Shown: in pieces, positions 1,216 through 63,899 of the stretch
How the letters are laid out: every line of letters starts with the position of its first letter
How positions within the stretch are numbered: the stretch's first letter is position 1
Source: Notolepis coatsorum
Lineage: Eukaryota; Chordata; Actinopteri; Aulopiformes; Paralepididae
DNA length: 64,000 nucleotides
Assembly: GCA_963971535.1 (NCBI GenBank)
Contig: OZ020589.1
Location: forward strand, 95,724,324-95,788,323
Direction: 5' to 3'
Program-made: the position numbers and the translations under genes
Notes under the pieces: generated by a model
Told to the model about the DNA's origin: nothing
The model's input: only the letters and a program-made list of their open reading frames with translations
The model's database searches: none

Positions 1216-1785
1216 CAGACGCAGGCAGCACAAATCTTCCATGGCTTTGGGGTACAATTGAACTCCCAGTTCAATGATACCTGACTGCATTATCTGCATT
1301 CATTAATCTGGCTATATTAAATTGGACTGGAGAAACTGAAAGATGCATGAGTCACAGAGGGAATTACCTGAATCTGCTGCACAGCTAACGTTATCTGTGG
1401 AAGGGATACGTCTCCAGACAGTCCAAGTAACCATACACGACATTCATCATTTTCATACAGTATGTTGCCAGTTGTTTGTGCTTTTCTTGATGTGTGGACT
1501 ACCTCTATTTTTGTTAGTTAGTTGGGATGGCTAGTGTTTACCCTAGACTTTCCTTCAGGCCTGGTGGTACGTACAGAAAAAGCCCTAAACAGACGAGGTG
1601 CATCATGGGATGGCATTATAGACCACCGCAACATTTTAACACACGCAGGGGGAAAAAATGAATGAATGTTGATGAGAGCCTCGACGTAAGTGGTTGTAGC
1701 TACGGCTGTGGGGGTGCTGGAGACATGATCCAATATACTTCTTTATACGTCTGAGTCTCCTGAACACGGAGATACCAACACAAGT
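1216..1785. other. Zinc-finger gene intron, nothing recognised
   Basis: This is AT-rich intron sequence. Short open frames show no recognisable motif, codon bias or repeat homology within this window. Confidence 0.5.
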
Positions 1786-2142
1786 TGTGGGGCGGCGTGG
1801 CTCAGGGGTAGAGCGGGTCGCCCAATGATCGAAGGGTTGGTGGTTCGAATCCCGCTCAAGCCCATGTCCATCCCACTGCCGTTGTGTCCTTGGGCAAGAC
1901 ACTTAACCTACTTGCCTCGTATGAATGCGTATGCATGTGAATGAATGTTGGTGGTGGTCGGAGGGGCCGTAGGCGATGATTATTCGCCACGCTTCCGGGA
2001 GTCTGCCTCAGGGCAGCTCTGGCTGCAATTGTAGCTTACCACCACCGGTATGACTGTGTATGAACGAATAATGGACTCTGTGAAGCGCTCTGAGTCAGAG
2101 AAGAGCGCTATATAAATCCAATCCATTATTATTATTATTATT
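1786..2142 (+). mobile_element. tRNA-derived SINE with L2-type tail
   Basis: The head contains pol III promoter boxes: an A-box-like tggctcaggggtaga and a B box ggttcgaatcc. The body ends in agcgctatataaatcc followed by an ATT repeat. The same tail ends the L2-like LINE near 6,970, which suggests that LINE mobilises it. A 6-bp target duplication (acaagt) flanks it at 1780-1785 and 2143-2148. Confidence 0.82.
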
Positions 2143-2143
2143 A

Positions 2144-2327
2144 CAAGTCGATCAGCACTTTCTCGGCCAAGCTATAGTCACCTTTCCGCACCTACTCCCC
2201 AAACTCTGCATGCACAGATTGCCCAGGGAGTCTCTAGATTGTCCACACACTCCCTGGGCAATCTGTGCATGCAGAGTTTGGGGAGCAGGTGTGGAAAAGT
2301 GAGAAAGAAAAAGCTCAGATCGACTTG
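2144..2327. repeat. Foldback (hairpin) element
   Basis: This is a long inverted repeat. The arms at 2144-2231 and 2249-2327 pair, with the inner about 40 bases nearly perfect, around a loop at 2232-2248. The outermost bases caagtcgatc and gatcgacttg are exact inverses. No coding capacity. It could be a MITE or a collapsed inverted duplication. Confidence 0.8.
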
Positions 2328-2480
2328 GGATTGGTCTCTCCATGTTCAGAATGATGTAGCTAAATAACTATTCCCCTTCCTGTTGCCAAAATTGATGTGA
2401 GAATGTGGATGGAAGAAACATTAGTTATTTACAACGTTATGAACAGTTGTAAATTTTGAGTGGTGACACAAATATTTATG

Positions 2481-2957
2481 TTTTTTTTTTTTATCCACTT
2501 TTTCTCCCATTTTCTATATTTTCTCCCATCCCAATTTCGTATCATCCAATTCAACCCTCCCCTGTCACGAACGGTTTCTTGCCTCCCACAAGCCGGCTGC
2601 AATGTGGACTAAGTCATACATAGCACAAGTCCCCTCCGATACTTGAGGTAACAGCAGTCGCATCTTTTCACCTGCGCAGCTCGATCTCTGTGGCGAGGAG
2701 AAACGCGTGGGAGGCTCACGCTGCCCCCGACACTTCCTGATTCTACTGCGCAGGCGCACCAACCGACCTGTAGGAGTCGCTGTCCACAACGCCCGATCCC
2801 CACCCATCAGTTTCCCACCCCCTAATACGGCCAATGTGTATTAGTATGAACGACCAGCTAAACTGAAAGCAATGTGGAGCGCTGGGCTCAAACAGGCGAG
2901 CCCAGCGTCTCTGCATTCGTGGCGAGCGCCTTGCCCACTACGCCACGTAGCCGCCCC
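2481..2957 (-). mobile_element. tRNA-derived SINE, minus orientation
   Basis: The 5' head (ggcggctacgtggcgtagtg) lies at 2957 and the A-rich tail appears as a T-run at 2481. It is flanked by a perfect 15-bp target duplication, acacaaatatttatg, at 2466-2480 and 2958-2972. It is the same family as 31,557-32,039, inverted. Confidence 0.9.
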
Positions 2958-3173
2958 ACACAAATATTTATGTTGAGTTGAAATGTATATCATTTCGAAT
3001 ACATTTTAAGCCTCATAAAAAATGAATTGGTCCTAAAATTCCACTGCAAATTGGTAGTGGTTTGTTTACAGCCCGTCGAAGATGGCGAATGAGGTTACCG
3101 ACTCTAGCCTGGAAGCAAAAAAGAAAAGAAAAAAGGGTTATACAGGCTCATCCGTAACGAGGACTGTTTTTAC

Positions 3174-4156
3174 TAGGCTTGGGCGGTATGACGGTATTAC
3201 GGTATACCAGGGTATTTAGAAATCCCGACGGTATTGAAAATCAATACCGTCTAAACGGAGTTTTGTTGTAGTGCACACACGCGCCAGCAGAGGGCGAGAC
3301 CAGTCCTCACTAGTGGGGCGAGCCATGCAGAGCTGGTTGTCTACACACAGGAGGAGGAGGAGGAGGAGGAGGAGGAGGAGGAGGGGAACCCCGCTTCAGT
3401 GAGTGAAATTAAATGAGACACGCTTACCGTTGCTGGTGCTGCGTGCTAACTGGCTATTCTGAGAGCTAACTGTAGTGTTGTGTATGATCACAACGGTGTT
3501 CACGCTTTACGGTAATGTTGCGACAGTGCTGTGAAAATACCGTAAAGTGTTGTGGTAACGAGGGTGTGTGTTGTTGTTGTGTGTAGGATGCTGCGGGCGA
3601 ACTGCTACCATTCTGAGAGCTTAACGTTAGCACTAGATGCTGCGGGCAAACTGCTACCATTCTGTGAGCTTAACGTTAGCACTAGATGCTGCGGGAGGAC
3701 TGCTACCATTCTGAGAGCTTAACGTTAGCACTAGATCGCTGCGGGAGAACTGCTACCATTCTGAGAGCTTAACGTTAGCACTAGATGCTGCGGGAGGACT
3801 GCTACCATTCTGAGAGCTTAACGTTAGCACTAGATTGCTGCGGGAGAACTGCTACCATTCTGAGAGCTTAACGTTAGCACTAGATGCTGCGGGAGGACTG
3901 CTACCATTCTGAGAGCTTAACGTTAGCACTAGATTGCTGCGGGAGAACTGCTACCATTCTGAGAGCTTAACGTTAGCACTAGATGCTGCGGGCAAACTGG
4001 CCATCTCCGAGATTTGTTTACTTGGTAACACGGGTTGCCACCCCCCCCCCCCCCCCCCCCCGCGCTGATGATAATGAAAGTCATACCGTCATATACCGTA
4101 TACCGGGGTATTAGGTAATCAAGGTATAACGGTATAAGTCATACCGCCCAAGCCTA
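3174..4156. mobile_element. Non-autonomous hAT element (TAGGCTTGGGCGGTAT termini)
   Basis: Terminal inverted repeats TAGGCTTGGGCGGTATGAC and its inverse flank the element, with a perfect 8-bp target duplication gtttttac at 3166-3173 and 4157-4164. This is the hAT signature. The interior holds a GGA repeat (3350-3383), a 51-bp minisatellite and a run of 21 C (4041-4061), and no transposase. Confidence 0.92.
3586..4006. repeat. 51-52 bp minisatellite inside hAT element
   Basis: About eight units containing ctaccattctgagagctta. The later units alternate between two variants (gggaggactg and gggagaactg), a two-unit higher-order pattern of about 103 bp. The length fits neither coding sequence nor CRISPR structure. 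Confidence 0.9.
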
Positions 4157-42717: not shown

Positions 42718-43538
42718 CTACAGTCTGGTGTATATATTCAGGCCTTACAGTCCGATAGGTATCCAGGTCTTACAGTCTGATAGGTGTATATATTCAGGTC
42801 TTACAGTCTGATAAGGTGTATATATTCAAGTCTTACAGTCTGATAGGTGTATGTGTCCAGGTCGCGTGTATATTTTCCCCAACAGAGTTTCACTTCCGCG
42901 TTTGGTTTGCGCGATCTGATTGGCCACTGAATTTTTTTTTGCGCCAATCGCGTTACTCCTAACAATCGCGCCAGCAGGCTGTTACCCTAATCTTAACCAA
43001 CTAACACTAACCTTAACCCACTAACCTTAACCAACTAATCCTAACCAACTAACCCTAACCTTAACCAACTTTGAAAGAGAGCGACTTCGAAAGAGTCGCC
43101 AGGCTTAACCAGTTTGTTAGGAGTAATGTGATTGGCGCTGAAAAAAACGTTAGTGGCCAATCAGATCGCGCAAACCGAACGCGGAAGTGAAACTCGGTTG
43201 GGGAAAATATACAGGCGTCCAGGTCCTACAGTCTGATAGGTGTATATATTCAGGTCTGACAGTCTGATAGGTGTATATATTCAGGTCCTGCAGTCTGATA
43301 GGTGTATATATTAAAGTCCTACAGTCTGATATGTGTATGTATTCAGGTCCTACTGTCTGACATGTGTATGTATTCAGGTCCTACTGTCTGATATGTGTAT
43401 GTATTCAGGTCCTACAGTCTGATGGGTGTATGTATTCAGGTCCTACTGTCTGATATGTGTATGTATTCAGGTCCTACAGTCTGATAGGTGTATATATTTA
43501 GGTCCTACTGTCTGATAGGTGTATCATCCAGGTCTTAC
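42718..43538 (-). repeat. 31-bp minisatellite seeded at a ccdc130 splice donor
   Basis: About 15 units of roughly 31 bp (ggtcctacagtctgatagg plus tgtatatattca on the plus strand). The array starts directly at the 5' splice site of exon 43,539-43,677. On the minus strand many units carry GACTGTAAGACCTG, the same bases that cross the exon-intron border. A foldback MITE splits it, and the copia element sits at its far end. Confidence 0.9.
42864..43217. mobile_element. Foldback MITE with telomere-like core
   Basis: Inverted ends of about 90 bases (tatattttccccaac, ttcacttccgcgtttggttt and their inverses) flank the element. An 8-bp duplication tccaggtc lies at 42,856-42,863 and 43,218-43,225. The core (42,990-43,075) has degenerate ctaaccttaaccaacta repeats. 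It is inserted in the 31-bp minisatellite. Confidence 0.85.
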
Positions 43539-43677
43539 AGTCAGAGGCCTGGTAGGTGAGCAGTGCAGCCAGTTTCTTGTCCTCCTCCTTCTCTGGTAAC
43601 AGTGGGATGGACAGATTCGTCCTCATCCTGACAGCGTTGTCCTTCTCTTCCTGCTCTGCAAACACTTTCTTCTCCGT
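43539..43677 (-). CDS. ccdc130: ccdc130/yju2b exon (TEKKV...)
   Basis: An internal exon of 139 bases coding TEKKVFAEQEEKDNAVRMRT, NLSIPLLPEKEEDKKLAALL and TYQASD, the conserved charged coiled-coil part of the YJU2B family. The acceptor is ggttcatgcag (43,678-43,688) and the exon starts in phase 0. It ends one base into a Ser codon before the donor GTAAGA at 43,538. The next exon (36,442) supplies CC. The phase match on both sides and the family sequence make the exon secure. Its donor is the first unit of a 31-bp minisatellite. If that donor failed, reading into the array would meet a stop after about 14 codons. Confidence 0.95.
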
Positions 43678-53915: not shown

Positions 53916-55258
53916 AACTAGGTTATATACATAACCTTCCGTTTTATTGTGTGGGCACATTACACATTTAGTTTTGTTGTGTGGGCACATTAGACCTCCA
54001 CTATACACTCACTAGACCTACAGAGAGAGACCTCCACTATATACTCACTAGACCTACAGAGAGAGACCTCCACTATACACTCACTAGACCTACAGAGAGA
54101 GACCTCCACTATACACTCACTATACCTACAGAGAGAGACCTCCACTATACACTCACTAGACCTGCAGAGAGAGACCTCCACTATACTCACTAGACCTACA
54201 GAGAGAGACCTCCACTATACTCACTAGACCTACAGAGAGAGACCTCCACTATACACTTACTATACCTACAGAGAGAGACCTCCACTATACACTCACTATA
54301 CCTACAGAGAGAGACCTCCACTATACTCACTAGACCTACAGAGAGACCTCCACTATACACTCACTATACCTACAGAGAGAGACCTCCACTATACACTCAC
54401 TATACCTACAGAGACCTCCACTATATACTCACTAGACCTACAGAGAGACCTCCACTATACACTCACTATACCTACAGAGAGAGACCTCCACTATACACTC
54501 ACTATACCTACAGAGAGAGACCTCCACTATACACTCACTATACCTACAGAGAGAGACCTCCACTATATACTCACTATACCTACAGAGAGAGACCTCCACT
54601 ATATACTCACTAGACCTACAGAGAGAGACCTCCACTATACACTCACTATACCTACAGAGAGAGACCTCCACTATATACTCACTAGACCTACAGAGAGACC
54701 TCCACTATACACTCACTATACCTACAGAGAAGGCCTCCACTATACACTCACTATACCTACAGAGAGACCTCCACTATACACTCACTATACCTGCAGAGAG
54801 AGACCTCCACTATACACTCACTAGACCTACAGAGAGACCTCCACTATACTCACTAGACCTACAGAGAGAGACCTCCACTATACACTCACTAGACCTACAG
54901 AGAGAGACCTCCACTATACACTCACTATACCTACAGAGAGACCTCCACTATACACTCACTATACCTACAGAGAGAGACCTCCACTATACACTCACTATAC
55001 CTACAGAGAGAGACCTCCACTATACACTCACTATACCTACAGAGAGAGATACCTCCACTATACACTCACTAGACCTGCAGAGAGAGACCTCCACTATACA
55101 CTCACTATACCTACAGAGAGACCTCCACTATACACTCACTATACCTACAGAGAGACCTACAGAGAGAGACCTCCACTATACACTCACTATACCTACAGAG
55201 AGAGACCTCCACTATACACTCACTATACCTACAGAGAGAGACCTCCACTATACACTCA

Positions 55259-56481
55259 CAGGGCTGTACGCTAAGCTTTTTCACTAGGGGCACACTTGCC
55301 CCTAAATGAGAAATTTAGGGGCAAAAAATATTTTTTAGGGGCAAATTTTTAAATAACAATTTTACCATTATTTATATCGATTGTTTTTTATTTAAAAAAG
55401 AAAAGAAAAAAAATTATTTTATATAATTTTTTTTTTAAATAAAAAATATATATTATATAATCATACTTGTAGTTGTATTATCTGCGAGACATCGCCACCA
55501 CGCAACACGTCTAAATGCTCGCTATATGCAACCAGCTCCACTGTCTGTGTGTACTGAGTAGCCTCCAGCTACGGCCACGATTCTCCGGGGGTGCAGCTGG
55601 ACCCTAAACGCTACATTCAGCATGCAAAAGAATTCTCCGGCGCTGCACCTGGACCCTAGTCAGCAGCCCTCACTCATGCGATGTAAACCAGGGACTCGAA
55701 TACGCATGTTGTTGTTGTAGCCAGGACATTGATGCCAGGAGCTTTCTGTAGCTACTGCTGGATGGCGTTGGGACAACGCCTCAGTGAACTATTTAGTTTA
55801 CTGCAACATTTCGTAGTGACTAGTTACCTAGCCAACGGAGGTATTATGCACTGGACTATTGCTGATGGATTTGTTGATGTCGGGAGCTATCCGTAGCTAG
55901 CCGGCTGGATAACGTTACACAATGCCTCAAAGTCATGTATTAAACTAAGTGAATAGTTGACTGGGTCATTTTGTAACGGTAGCTAACGTTATCTCACGAA
56001 GGTCCTACTGACTAGACTAACGTCTCGGTGAGGCAATAGCCTCTGTTTACATGCAACAGGTGGGGAGGGGGTAGCAGCAGCAGCAGCAGTGCGCGGTGCG
56101 CGCTTCATGTGTGCTGAGACAGCGAGTGAGAACTCCGCTAAAGAATTGGATCATGATTTTCACATGACTATTTGATTGAGCGCCACACGGCGCTCAGACG
56201 TCTCAGTGGGAGGCGCCAAACGTAAAAACTGAGCGCAAATGGCGGGTGGCGCTCTAGTTTCGGTCCCTGGTTCCCGCTGATCATACCTGCTGAGTGCTCA
56301 CTGCTCAGCTCGCGTGAGTGACGTCATCGCGTCATCACACGCCTTGGATAATTTAGGAGTGAAATGCGAATCCAAGGCTTGAAAGCACTACTCGCAAGCC
56401 CGCCCCCAGATAATATTTACCAATCGCAACGGCCAATTAAAGGGGCAATTCGCGATGATATCATCGCAGTGTACAGGCCTG
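55259..56481. mobile_element. hAT-type MITE with 5-bp target duplication, copy 2
   Basis: The termini are CAGGGCTGTACGCTAAG and GTGTACAGGCCTG, flanked by actca (55,254-55,258; 56,482-56,486). Same family as 7,067-8,084 with a longer interior. It landed inside the 36-bp minisatellite. Confidence 0.88.
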
Positions 56482-57318
56482 ACTCACTAGACCTGCAGAG
56501 AGAGACCTCCACTATACACTCACTATACCTACAGAGAGAGACCTCCACTATACACTCACTATACCTACAGAGAGACCTCCACTATACACTCACTAGACCT
56601 ACAGAGAGAGACCTCCACTATACACTCACTATACTTACAGAGAGACCTCCACTATACACTCACTATACCTACAGAGAGACCTCCACTATACACTCACTAG
56701 ACCTACAGAGAGAGACCTCCACTATACACTCACTATACCTACAGAGAGACCTCCACTATACACTCACTAGACCTACAGAGAGAGACCTCCACTATACACT
56801 CACTAGACCTACAGAGAGAGACCTCCACTATACACTCACTATACCTACAGAGAGACCTCCACTATACACTCACTATACCTACAGAGAGAGACCTCCACTA
56901 TACACTCACTAGACCTACAGAGAGACCTCCACTATACACTCACTATACCTACAGAGAGACCTCCACTATACACTCACTAGACCTACAGAGAGACCTCCAC
57001 TATACACTCACTATACCTACAGAGAGACCTCCACTATACACTCACTATACCTACAGAGAGACCTCCACTATACACTCACTATACCTACAGAGAGAGACCT
57101 CACTATACACTCACTATACCTGCAGAGAGAGACCTCCACTATACACTCACTATACCTACAGAGAGAGACCTCCACTATACACTCACTAGACCTACAGAGA
57201 GACCTCCACTATACACTCACTAGACCTACAGAGAGAGACCTCCACTATACACTCACTAGACCTACAGAGAGAGACCTCCACTATACACTCACTAGACCTA
57301 CAGAGAGAGACCTCCACT

Positions 57319-58604: not shown

Positions 58605-58777
58605 CCTGAATTTCCTGCGGAGGCCGCTGTTGAGCTGGAAGTCGTCCCTCCAGCCGGCCTGGTGGTCCTGGATCTCCGACAGCGAGGGAATCGCCTTCTT
58701 CAGCTTCTCGCGGTCTTTCCCTCCGTGGTCCAGCTTGAACATGGGGTCAGTCTCCAGTTTCTTCTTCTCCTCCCGCT
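58605..58777 (-). CDS. ccdc130: ccdc130/yju2b exon (EREEKKK...)
   Basis: A 173-base internal exon. After the acceptor tttgtccccag (58,778-58,788), two bases complete a Glu codon. It codes EREEKKKLETDPMFKLDHGG, KDREKLKKAIPSLSEIQDHQ and AGWRDDFQLNSGLRRKFR, a highly conserved helical region of YJU2B. It ends in phase 0 before the donor GTATTG at 58,604. It continues into TEKKV of the exon at 43,677 across a 14.9-kb intron. Unlike two neighbours, its donor is not followed by a minisatellite. Identification by family sequence is firm. Confidence 0.96.
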
Positions 58778-60914: not shown

Positions 60915-62100
60915 ATGAGGAGCCTGAGAGGAGCCTGAGAGAAGCCTGAGAGGAGCCTGAGAGGAGCCTGAGAGGAACCTGAGAGGAGCCTGAGAGGAAC
61001 CTGAGAGGAGCCTGAGAGGAGCCTGAGGCCTGGGAGGAGCCTGAGAGGAGCCTGAGAGGAGCCTGAGAGGAGCCTGAGAGAAGCCTGAGAGGAGCCTGAG
61101 AGGAACCTGAGAGGAGCCTGAGAGGAGCCTGAGAGGAACCTGAGAGGAGCCTGAGAGGAGCCTGAGAGGAGCCTGACGCCTGAGAGGAGCCTGAGAGGAG
61201 CCTGACGCCTGAGAGGAGCCTGAGAGGAACCTGAGAGGAACCTGAGAGGAGCCTGAGAGGAGCCTGACGCCTGAGAGGAGCCTGAGAGGAGCCTGAGAGG
61301 AGCCTGACGCCTGAGAGGAGCCTGAGAGGAACCTGAGAGAAGCCTGAGAGGACCCTGACGCCTGAGAGGAGCCTGAGGCCTGAGAGGAGCCTGAGAGGAG
61401 CCTGACGCCTGAGAGGAGCCTGAGAGGAGCCTGAGAGGAGCCTGACGCCTGAGAGGAGCCTGACGCCTTCCGACCACTACCACCAAGCCTCTTCAACTAA
61501 TTCAGAACGCAGCGGCCCGCCTGATCTCAAACCGACCGATGTCAGCCGATGTCACCCCACTTCTCAGGGACCTGCACTGGCTCCCCATGGCCGTATGAAT
61601 CCGCTTCAAGGCCCTCAACCTGGCATATCGTGCAGCGAAGGGAACAGCTCCCGCCTACCTCCAGTCAATGGTCTCTAACTACACACCCTACGCTCTGCCT
61701 CTTCTGGCCACCTCAGACCTTCTCCTATCCAAGCTCCGGGAGGGTCATCAAAGAGAAGTTGCCTATTCTCAGTCCTTGCCCCACAATGGTGGAACGAACT
61801 TCCCACCACAGTTAGGACAGCCGAACCCCATCCAATCTTTCACCGTCGACTAAAGACGCACTTCTTCAATCATTATCTGAAAATAAATAAAAAATACTCT
61901 AATCCTAACTAACCTTACTGTCATGAACTTGTCCTAATATACTAACCTACACTATAGCACTCAACACTTTGATGAACATTGTTACTCAGCTGATAGAGTT
62001 GGACCCTTCCTGCTGTCTTGTTGTACAAAACTTGTAAGTCGCTTTGGATAAAAGCGTCAGCTAAATGACAAAATTACGCCTGAGAGGAGCCTGAGAGGAA
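60915..62100. repeat. 11-bp minisatellite, split by an L2 fragment
   Basis: About 50 units of gagaggagcct at 60,915-61,468, with periodic cctgacgcct and cctgaggcct variants. A further about two units lie at 62,076-62,100 after the L2 insertion. The unit length shifts frame each time, so open frames occur in all three frames and are meaningless. Confidence 0.95.
61469..62075 (+). mobile_element. L2-like LINE 3' fragment
   Basis: It encodes in pieces LIQNAAARLISNRP, LLRDLHWLPM, RFKALNLAYRAAKGTAPAYL and ends gctttggataaaagcgtcag, a conserved L2-type 3' tail. A 6-bp duplication acgcct (61,463-61,468; 62,076-62,081) flanks it. It is inserted in the 11-bp minisatellite. 5'-truncated, not functional. 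Confidence 0.88.
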
Positions 62101-62280: not shown

Positions 62281-62423
62281 CTGTGGTGAGGATCTGTTCA
62301 TTGTCGGCCATGTCCCAGCGCTCCTCCTTCCGCTGAGCTCCGATCACGATCACATAGTCACAGGTGGCAGGATCGGTCTGCATCTCTATGTAGTTCACAC
62401 ACAGGTGGCACTTCATACGGAAC
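62281..62423 (-). CDS. ccdc130: ccdc130/yju2b exon (FRMKCHLC...)
   Basis: A 143-base internal exon. The first base G completes the Arg codon left open (AG) by exon 63,839-63,899. It codes FRMKCHLCVNYIEMQTDPAT, CDYVIVIGAQRKEERWDMAD and NEQILTT, then one base G. KCHLC provides a Cys pair of the zinc-binding N-terminal domain of YJU2-family proteins. The other pair should lie in the exon outside the window. The acceptor is ctctctcccag (62,424-62,434) and the donor is GTACCT at 62,280. Both flanks are CT microsatellite. The conserved TDPATCDYVI block makes the identification certain. Confidence 0.97.
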
Positions 62424-62691
62424 CTGGGAGAGAGAGAGACAGAGTGAGAGAGACACAGGGTGCGAGAGAGAAAGAGAGAGAGACACAGGGTGTGAGAGAG
62501 AGAGAGACACAGGGTGTGAGAGAGACGAAGAGTGCGAGAGAGAGACAAAGAGTGTGAGAGACAGGGTGTGAGAGAGAGAGTGAGAGAGACACATGGTGTG
62601 AGAGACAAAGAGTGTGAGAGAGAGACAGAGTGAGAGAGAGTGTGAGAGAGAGACAGATTGAGAGTGAGAAATAGACAGAGTGAGAGACGGA

Positions 62692-62748
<57 letters not shown>

Positions 62749-62860
62749 ACACACAGGGTGTGAGAGATAGAGTGTGTGACTAAGTCCCGTCATGCAGTAG
62801 TATAGATCTACTGCCACCCCAGTGTGAGAGAGACACAGAGTAAGAGACAGAGACAGAGTA
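62424..62860. repeat. GA-rich degenerate microsatellite
   Basis: GAGA runs with gacacagggtgtg-like islands, and a perfect GA run at 62,704-62,744. On the gene strand this is a 400-base pyrimidine tract directly before the acceptor of exon 62,281-62,423. Confidence 0.92.
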
Positions 62861-62921
62861 CAACTGTCCGACAAGTACAACACGCGCTGCTTCAGCACCA
62901 AGTAATTCTGTGTGTTTACCT

Positions 62922-63838
62922 GTAGATCAGTGTGGTGTAGTAGTTCTGTGTTACCTGTAGATCAGTGTGGTGTAGTAGTTCTATGTTTACCTGTAGATCA
63001 GTGTGGTGTAGTAGTTCTGTGTTACCTGTAGATCAGTGTGGTGTAGTAGTTCTGTGTTACCTGTAGATCAGTGTGGTGTAGTAGTTCTATGTTTACCTGT
63101 AGATCAGTGTGGTGTAGTAGTTCTGTGTTACCTGTAGATCAGTGTGGTGTAGTAGTTCTGTGTTACCTGTAGATCAGTGTGGTGTAGTAGTTCTATGTTT
63201 ACCTGTAGATCAGTGTGGTGTAGTAGTTCTGTGTTTACCTGTAGATCAGTGTGGTGTAGTAGTTCTATGTTTACCTGTAGATCAGTGTGGTGTAGTAGTT
63301 CTATGTTTACCTGTAGATCAGTGTGGTGTAGTAGTTCTGTGTTTACCTGTAGATCAGTGTGGTGTAGTAGTTCTGTGTTACCTGTAGATCAGTGTGGTGT
63401 AGTAGTTCTGTGTTTACCTGTAGATCAGTGTGGTGTAGTAGTTCAGTGTTACCTGTAGATCAGTGTGGTGTAGTAGTTCTATGTTTACCTGTAGATCAGT
63501 GTGGTGTAGTAGTTCTGTGTTACCTGTAGATCAGTGTGGTGTAGTAGTACTATGTTTACCTGTAGATCAGTGTGGTGTAGTAGTTCTGTGTTTACCTGTA
63601 GATCAGTGTGGTGTAGTAGTTCTGTGTTACCTGTAGATCTGTGTGGTGTAGTAGTTCTGTGTTACCTGTAGATCAGTGTGGTGTAGTAGTTCCGTTTACC
63701 TGTAGATCTGTGTGGTGTAGTAGTTCTGTGTTACCTGTAGATCTGTGTGGTGTAGTAGTTCTGCGTTACGTGTAGATCTGTGTGGTGTAGTAGTTCCGTT
63801 TACCTGTAGATCGGTGTGGTGTAGTAGTTCTGTGTTAC
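62922..63838 (-). repeat. 35/36-bp minisatellite copied from a ccdc130 exon end and its splice donor
   Basis: About 26 units. On the gene strand each reads AACTACTACACCACACNGAT CTACAG then GTAACACAG or GTAAACATAG, so each contains the last 26 bases of exon 63,839-63,899 and its GTAA donor. Units nearest the exon keep the exon's CCG codon. Farther ones have CAG or CTG. The array fills the intron start up to about 62,922. Confidence 0.96.
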
Positions 63839-63899
63839 CTGTAGATCGGTGTGGTGTAGTAGTTCCCCACTTTCTTCTTCTCTGCATTGTAACGTACCC
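63839..63899 (-). CDS. ccdc130: ccdc130/yju2b exon (VRYNAEKKKVGNYYTTPIYR)
   Basis: A 61-base internal exon. After the acceptor gtctgttcag (63,900-63,909) it has two bases of a Gly codon, then VRYNAEKKKVGNYYTTPIY and AG of an Arg codon completed by the next exon. This is the conserved strand region before the second Cys pair of the YJU2 zinc domain. The donor is GTAACA at 63,838. The exon's 3' 26 bases are repeated about 26 times in the following intron. Any use of a later donor copy would read TAC AGG TAA, an immediate stop. The start codon and about 65 residues lie beyond the window. Confidence 0.94.

What the first reader, a model, noticed from the sequence alone, without database searches (positions are those of the whole stretch)
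62922..63899. Minisatellite built from a coding exon end and its own 5' splice site (ccdc130)
Seen directly: after exon 63,839-63,899 the intron consists of about 26 tandem 35/36-bp copies of the last 26 exon bases plus the GTAA donor. The copy next to the exon is identical over those 26 bases, including the CCG proline codon; distal copies carry CAG or CTG. This gradient suggests the array grew outward from the exon border. Every copy is a potential decoy donor. Because the exon ends AG, use of any distal copy gives AGG TAA, an immediate stop. The cell must choose the first of about 27 near-identical donors.
Basis: seen in the sequence. Interest (0 to 1): 0.86.

Follow-up and report, generated by a model that had tools for sequence, protein, structure and literature searches.

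The report
Exon end and donor copied 26 times
In a fish splicing-factor gene the last bases of one exon, together with its splice signal, have been copied 26 times into the intron, so the cell must pick the first of 27 near-identical signals; a known rule that favours the signal closest across a short exon probably explains how it does so.

Summary
Exon 63,839-63,899 of ccdc130/yju2b (minus strand) is followed by 26 intronic copies, 34-36 nt apart, of its last 26-27 bases plus GTAA. 25 of 26 keep CAG|GTAA, with predicted U1 pairing as good as the true site. Any of the 26 gives an immediate stop. The "gradient" is a step (CCG, CAG, CTG), not a slope; private variants sit near the exon, repeated blocks far from it. 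The array was seeded at the exon; recent growth looks distal.

It is not unique: the same genome holds at least three more exon-anchored donor arrays, in bZIP, WD40_2 and probable tetraspanin genes. A donor motif is not clearly over-represented in tandem arrays (904 matches; 833 for a one-base non-donor control), and minisatellites are dense here, so chance formation plus tolerance suffices.

Best account: exon definition. The 61-nt exon has introns of 5,762 and 1,415 nt; there the upstream of two identical donors won (Carranza 2022). A human precedent is IFI6. RNA data are missing.

The parts
63839..63899 (-). ccdc130/yju2b exon 4 of those mapped (61 bp); its last 26-27 bases are the ancestor copy of the array
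   Evidence: tblastn 100% to P0001, P0002, P0003, P0029; boundaries CAG|GGGTAC and CTACAG|GTAACA; the spliced three-exon peptide matches PF04502 at 153.1 bits
63833..63838 (-). true 5' splice site of exon 4 (GTAACA)
   Evidence: phase joins Arg codon AG|G to exon 5 (FRMKCHLC) in frame; U1 duplex -8.0 kcal/mol
62920..63838 (-). 26 intronic tandem copies of exon end plus donor (spacing 34-36 nt)
63631..63838 (-). exon-proximal, heterogeneous end of the array: holds the CCG copy and all four CAG copies (ranks 1-4 and 6)
62950..63231 (-). distal part with the five-unit block GIKGI (letters code unit types) occurring twice, overlapping; approximate bounds
63870..63885 (-). purine-rich GCAGAGAAGAAGAAAG stretch of the exon, upstream of the duplicated unit; candidate splicing enhancer
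   Evidence: GAAGAA once in the exon, 0 times in the array stretch; position; the enhancer role is recalled general knowledge, not tested
62424..63838 (-). intron 4, 1,415 nt (496 nt if the last donor were used)
62281..62423 (-). exon 5 (143 bp)
58605..58777 (-). exon 6 (173 bp)
   Evidence: tblastn 74% to P0001; boundaries and open frame
43522..43674 (-). exon 7 region (approximate)
   Evidence: tblastn with P0003, P0004, P0025, 47-53% identity

Best explanation
A tandem duplication caught the 3' end of ccdc130 exon 4 with its donor and then expanded into a 26-copy minisatellite inside intron 4, by ordinary minisatellite unequal exchange or slippage that has lately been most active at the intron-ward end. 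It is tolerated because the exon is recognised by exon definition. The spliceosome pairs the upstream acceptor with the donor nearest across the 61-nt exon, which is always the first copy, helped by the purine-rich stretch found only in the real exon. The copies behind it stay inside the intron and are removed. Mis-selection of a distal copy adds AGG TAA and should yield a transcript subject to nonsense-mediated decay, so at most it lowers output. Shown: array anatomy, donor equality by U1 duplex, stops, intron lengths, polarity, conserved open coding exons among those mapped, other such arrays in the genome. Inferred: actual use of the first donor, the role of the purine-rich stretch, decay of mis-spliced RNA, mode and time of expansion.
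For: Flanking introns of 5,762 and 1,415 nt and a 61-nt exon place it in the long/long class, where donors of near-equal strength are preferentially used upstream; minigenes with two identical CAG/guaagu sites 52 nt apart and 365-nt introns used the upstream one exclusively (PMC9225289, abstract and passages). The mapped coding exons are open, exon 4 at 100% and exon 5 at 98% to P0001. The PF04502 search gave 9 matches, 3 on C13 (this gene), 4 on C4 (yju2), 1 on C21 and 1 on C32 (both yju2-like), with 95 of 343 candidates scored, so no second ccdc130 came up and the gene very likely still works. Three further exon-anchored arrays with 35, 67 and at least 3 donor copies exist in other genes, so such arrays are repeatedly tolerated. 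In the human IFI6 donor minisatellite a citing paper says two downstream repeat units serve as splice donors (PMC4526556 passage), so use there seems to stay near the exon.
Against: No RNA evidence of any kind. U1 pairing energies are a crude strength measure, and these donors (GTAAC, GTAAA) are weaker than the tested CAG/guaagu; with weak donor pairs the larger-exon minigenes skipped the exon. Over all alternative donor events, before filtering for equal strength, about 60% favoured the downstream site; after filtering about 60% favoured the upstream one, so the rule is not absolute. Classical two-site work favours the intron-proximal site (PMC6002489 passages; PMC9225289 introduction), and even the last donor leaves a 496-nt intron. 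The duplicated unit itself carries 26 nt of exon. The exon with the start codon and the end of the reading frame were not mapped, so the whole gene was not shown to be intact.
Confidence: 0.7

Rival explanations
1. Poison-donor rheostat: a fixed share of transcripts uses distal copies and is destroyed, so copy number tunes the level of a splicing factor, perhaps with feedback from splicing activity.
For: All 26 distal donors give the same immediate stop; 25 of 26 are kept intact and pair with U1 as well as the true site; the gene belongs to the Saf4/Yju2 family, whose members are splicing factors.
Against: Homogenisation alone keeps copies intact. Other arrays of this kind sit in a bZIP, a WD40_2 and a probable tetraspanin gene, and in the bZIP gene the read-through frame stays open for about 35 codons, so an immediate stop is not a constant design.
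Confidence: 0.07
2. Intron-proximal use: U1 fills all sites and the last donors win, so the gene is a hypomorph or on its way to loss.
For: Two comparable 5' sites 33 nt apart in human ESR1 exon 1 use the intron-proximal one, the reason being called not known; the U1 footprint is quoted as 23 + 12 nt, which equals the 35-nt period (PMC6002489 passages).
Against: Exons 4 and 5 are 100% and 98% identical to the P0001 protein, exon 6 74%, and no second copy came up. Exon-defined minigenes chose the upstream site.
Confidence: 0.07
3. Dual-specific or recursive splicing within the array: the CAG|GTAA joints act as both acceptor and donor and copies are removed piecemeal.
For: Each of the 25 intact joints is AG|GT; dual-specific sites are enriched in tandem-repeat introns in human (PMC10809524 abstract and passages).
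Against: By eye no pyrimidine-rich tract precedes the AG in the unit (ACACCACACTGATCTACAG), and the intron as mapped ends outside the array at exon 5.
Confidence: 0.07
4. Assembly artefact: true copy number is one or a few, or the array is misjoined.
For: Reads are not available; tandem arrays are hard to assemble.
Against: Copies carry ordered, private variants rather than perfect duplicates, and the assembly has long contigs or scaffolds (C13 182 Mb) with similar arrays elsewhere.
Confidence: 0.05
5. Donor-driven seeding: splice-donor sequence or co-transcriptional RNA-DNA hybrids at exon ends provoke tandem duplication.
For: Strict donor patterns in triplicate exceed their reversed controls: 4,420 to 1,040, 11,122 to 6,697, 904 to 40.
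Against: A one-base non-donor control, CTACAGCTAA, gives 833 matches (its own reversed control 0), nearly as many as the 904 of CTACAGGTAA. Counts are matches, not arrays, and in the listed parts single large arrays make up much of them.
Confidence: 0.04

Closest known systems
IFI6 (6-16, G1P3) minisatellite with multiple splice donors (Turri, Cuin, Porter 1995, NAR 23:1854; paper not held; title seen in the reference lists of PMC2915984, PMC4526556, PMC2572611 and PMC3618361; content via a passage of PMC4526556)
   Same: A minisatellite at an exon's donor offers several donor copies to one acceptor.
   Different: In IFI6 two downstream units are reported as used and give different protein isoforms; here every distal donor gives an immediate stop and the unit carries 26-27 nt of conserved coding exon.
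Exon-centric proximity rule, identical competing donors (Carranza, Shenasa, Hertel 2022, PMC9225289; abstract and passages)
   Same: Near-identical donors, long flanking introns, upstream choice expected.
   Different: Two engineered donors 52 nt apart there; 27 natural donors about 35 nt apart here.
Dual-specific splice sites in tandem repeats, UBC and 77 human introns (Duan et al. 2024, PMC10809524; abstract and passages)
   Same: AG|GT joints recur once per tandem unit.
   Different: There the intron lies within the repeat and its length is a multiple of the unit; here the acceptor lies outside the array.
ESR1 exon 1 pseudo-5' splice site (Ohe et al. 2018, PMC6002489; passages)
   Same: Comparable donors about one U1 footprint apart.
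   Different: Two sites, and the intron-proximal one is normally used.
Polymorphic intron minisatellites in fish, growth hormone introns 1 and 3 of Sparus aurata (mentioned in PMC3045353; passages)
   Same: Minisatellites in introns of a coding gene in a fish.
   Different: The passages seen say nothing of donors or exon ends in the unit.

Membership tests
Donor-providing minisatellite (IFI6 type) | Tandem array starting at an exon end, donor in each unit | tested here: met
   26 copies, 25 with CAG|GTAA
Donor-providing minisatellite (IFI6 type) | Distal units used as donors in mRNA | not testable with these tools
   no RNA data
Donor-providing minisatellite (IFI6 type) | Alternative donors give productive isoforms | tested here: not met
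   26 of 26 give a stop after IYR; so it is filed as a variant, not as the same thing
Donor-providing minisatellite (IFI6 type) | Copy number differs between individuals | not testable with these tools
   one assembly only
Exon-defined exon with equal competing donors | Flanking introns longer than about 250 nt | tested here: met
   5,762 and 1,415 nt; the 200-250 nt transition is from a passage of PMC9225289
Exon-defined exon with equal competing donors | Donors of near-equal strength | tested here: met
   U1 duplex -8.0 for the true site, -8.0 or -8.3 for 25 of 26 copies, -1.6 for copy 2; MaxEnt, the measure used in the paper, was not run
Exon-defined exon with equal competing donors | Upstream donor is the one used | not testable with these tools
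   no RNA data
Dual-specific tandem-repeat intron (UBC type) | Intron length is a multiple of the unit, both ends inside the repeat | tested here: not met
   the acceptor AG is at 62,424-62,425, outside the array
ccdc130/yju2b gene | Saf4_Yju2 domain and conserved exon 4 peptide | tested here: met
   PF04502 153.1 bits against cut-off 27.8; exon 4 100%

The most novel reading that the evidence does not exclude
Exon-end donor minisatellites are a recurrent genome-wide feature of this fish genome that acts as graded poison-donor ladders: about one U1 snRNP per 35-nt footprint can load, and copy number sets the fraction of stop-containing transcripts of a splicing factor, giving a heritable, fast-mutating control of splicing output.
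Probability: 0.05. Interest if true: 0.85.

Novelty: new variant of a known kind. Interest (0 to 1): 0.42.

Why it matters
How the intron-proximal of two comparable 5' splice sites comes to be favoured is described as not known (citing Roca 2013) in PMC6002489, and the opposite, exon-centric rule rests on two-donor minigenes and transcriptome statistics. Natural arrays of roughly 27, 36 and 68 donors in coding genes of one genome give ready-made, strongly graded tests of these rules, and natural alleles with different copy numbers, if they exist, would act as a dose series. They also show how far a minisatellite may invade a coding exon's border without evident harm to the gene.

Tried and rejected
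Smooth divergence gradient: rejected. Spearman on distance to the exon copy is -0.06; kept instead as an ordered step.

Genome-wide enrichment of donor motifs in tandem arrays: first seemed strong against the tool's reversed control, then not supported by a one-base non-donor control (833 against 904 matches). A second such control, CTACACGTAA, was asked for once (not completed) and not repeated.

Census of exon-anchored arrays: the tool lists only about the first 100 matches, all on C1. One search listed 9 array places; all 9 were fetched with flanks (L051-L059): 1 exon-anchored (L059), 8 without an evident exon by eye (L057 unclear). One search listed 5 array places; none was fetched. One search gave 105 matches and 8 loci; L001 is the window itself, and of L002-L008 only 500 bases at the centre were viewed. 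L004 was then read whole and is exon-anchored; the flanks of the other six were not checked for exons. So no genome-wide number is claimed beyond four cases including the window. The naive chance figure (292 to 1,138 donor-spanning arrays) uses an assumed 150,000-250,000 donors and 13 arrays in 100 kb.

In the WD40_2 array the first intronic copy is not identical to the exon end: it matches only 4 nt exactly from the donor, the third 10 nt, so the pattern of an exon-identical first copy holds in the window, the bZIP and the probable tetraspanin cases (27, 25 and 33 nt), not in all four.

Tetraspanin label for L063: Pfam gives only 12.8 bits, E 0.092, below cut-off, though near the C-terminal end of the profile (185-211 of 225); no PDB hit. 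Hence "probable". The name creb5-like for L004 in my notes is recalled; the tested label is bZIP_1, 52.5 bits. The WD40_2 label is tested (43.3 bits); its RhoGEF kinship in my notes is recalled.

Exon boundaries were first sliced wrongly: exon 5 (this affects only the copy-0 row, not the stop result) and exon 6 (one base too many at each end, so the tail printed there is out of frame); one search gives the right joint and an open frame.

Literature: searches (listings of titles and abstract starts) showed no report of exon-end donor minisatellites in fish or of this gene's array; passages of PMC3039753, PMC12783039 and PMC3045353 showed none either. The library lacks most subscription papers, so this is weak. 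Turri 1995 itself was not held.

Full report
What is there. The window lies at G000:C13:95,724,324-95,788,323 of a 3.42-Gb genome, taken to be a fish from its gene content (inference). The minus strand carries ccdc130/yju2b. tblastn with database homologues places coding exons, or parts of them, at window positions 71,759-71,691, 71,616-71,527, 69,727-69,662 (beyond the window, in L009), 63,899-63,839, 62,423-62,281, 58,777-58,605, about 43,674-43,522 and about 36,443. The exon with the start codon and the end of the reading frame were not mapped. The spliced peptide of exons 4 to 6 matches PF04502 with 153.1 bits and is open through the joints. A PF04502 search of the genome gave 9 matches, with 95 of 343 candidates scored: three belong to this gene, four on C4 are yju2, one on C21 is an intronless yju2-like frame and one on C32 a broken yju2-like copy. 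No second ccdc130 came up.

The array. After exon 4 come 26 intronic copies of its last 26-27 bases plus GTAA and a few more intron bases, spaced 35 nt (13 times), 36 (11) or 34 (2). The first intronic copy matches the exon over 27 nt exactly. At the exon's CCG codon the copies read CCG (copy 1), CAG (copies 2, 3, 4, 6) and CTG (the other 21). The non-CTG copies are clustered next to the exon (permutation p 3e-5), and copies of unique sequence are also clustered there (6 of 26, p 0.001), while a five-unit block recurs in the distal part. There is no smooth gradient in distance from the exon copy (Spearman -0.06). The plain reading is an old, stable exon-side edge and a recently expanded, homogenised interior and far end.

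The donors. 25 of 26 copies keep CAG|GTAA. Extending the exon to any of the 26 distal donors gives a stop directly after ...TPIYR. The one GAAGAA of the exon lies upstream of the duplicated unit and is absent from the array.

Not a singleton. A search of the own genome with the array returned, among similar tandem arrays, a bZIP gene (L004, C7:88.84 Mb) whose exon end CCAACCTGCAGCTACAG|GTAACACAC is followed by 35 copies, spacing 29-53, median 35 (bZIP_1 52.5 bits). A triple-donor pattern led to L059 (C1:194.57 Mb), where a 68-nt exon coding YLDNKVFVSLANGDVIVYQREA is followed by 67 donor sites, 65 of them 30 or 32 nt from the one before, one 64 and one 437, the last perhaps stray; joined to its next exon the peptide matches WD40_2 with 43.3 bits. 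Its first copies are not identical to the exon end (4 to 10 nt exact). A second pattern led to L063 (C1:18.56 Mb), an 87-nt exon coding [29 protein letters not shown] followed, in the 451 bases held, by at least three copies 44-47 nt apart, probably a tetraspanin. In the WD40_2 and probable tetraspanin cases the exon frame meets a stop within the first unit; in the bZIP case it stays open for about 35 codons. So an early stop is common but not a rule. What was looked at and dropped is told under Tried and rejected.

Is the donor motif favoured? Against the tool's reversed-pattern control, triple donors are in excess (4,420 to 1,040; 11,122 to 6,697; 904 to 40). But a one-base change that removes the donor, CTACAGCTAA, gives 833, with 0 for its own reversed pattern. 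These are match counts, and in the listed parts single large arrays make up much of them. I do not claim donor-driven seeding. With 13 minisatellite arrays in the 100 kb around the gene, random placement alone would put arrays over hundreds of donors before selection, on an assumed donor number. Four known cases need no special mechanism.

How it likely works. Carranza et al. 2022 (PMC9225289, abstract and passages) report that among donors of near-equal strength the upstream one is preferred under exon definition (about 60% of filtered events, against a downstream preference of about 60% before filtering), and that minigenes with two identical CAG/guaagu donors 52 nt apart used the upstream one exclusively; with weak donors the larger exons were skipped. 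Exon 4 has flanking introns of 5,762 and 1,415 nt, the long/long class. That predicts 63,838 as the used donor whatever the copy number. Against it stands the older intron-proximal preference, whose basis is called not known in PMC6002489 (passages). That paper also quotes a U1 footprint of 23 + 12 nt, equal to this array's 35-nt period, so adjacent copies could just hold U1 side by side. This is a coincidence worth testing, not evidence: other arrays here have spacings of 30-47 nt and more. The conserved exons and the lack of a second copy argue that the correct mRNA is made.

What is known. A minisatellite giving multiple donors is known from human IFI6 (Turri 1995, seen only as a cited title; content via PMC4526556). 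Dual-specific AG|GT sites in tandem repeats are known from UBC and other human introns (PMC10809524, abstract and passages). The present case differs in carrying conserved coding sequence in each unit and in having only non-productive alternatives, and it is one of several in the same genome.

Verdict. A real and tidy natural experiment in 5' splice-site choice, with a known kind behind it and a known rule that probably explains it. RNA data would settle it.

Noticed in passing
60917-61463: 11-bp array (53 copies by TRF) whose gene-strand unit CTCCTCTCAGG ends in an acceptor-like CTCTCAG|G: many decoy acceptor-like sites in intron 5 of the same gene.
   Followed up: no
53992-55259 and 56482-57318: Two related arrays (period 36 and 70) whose gene-strand unit reads TCTCTCTCTGTAG|GTATAGTGAGTG, resembling an acceptor joined to donors; in intron 6 of ccdc130.
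   Followed up: no
L012 (C21:30259413-30260348): Intronless open frame of 334 aa matching the Saf4_Yju2 profile at 1-330 of 332, a likely yju2 retrogene; a broken relative lies on C32 (L020).
   Followed up: partly
62021-62074 (+): UnaL2 LINE 3' element match (57 bits, gathering 55) in intron 5.
   Followed up: no
G000:C1:158384332 to at least 158387226: A very long array of 31-bp units CTACAGGTAACACTGCCCCATCACATATAAA, each with a donor-like CAG|GTAA; whether it starts at an exon was not checked.
   Followed up: no
L059, about 1676-3738: A second minisatellite (34-bp step) with open stretches in several frames lies just upstream of the WD40_2 exon, so this exon has arrays on both sides.
   Followed up: no
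375-725: 84-bp period repeat whose reverse strand looks like C2H2 zinc-finger coding units (by eye).
   Followed up: no
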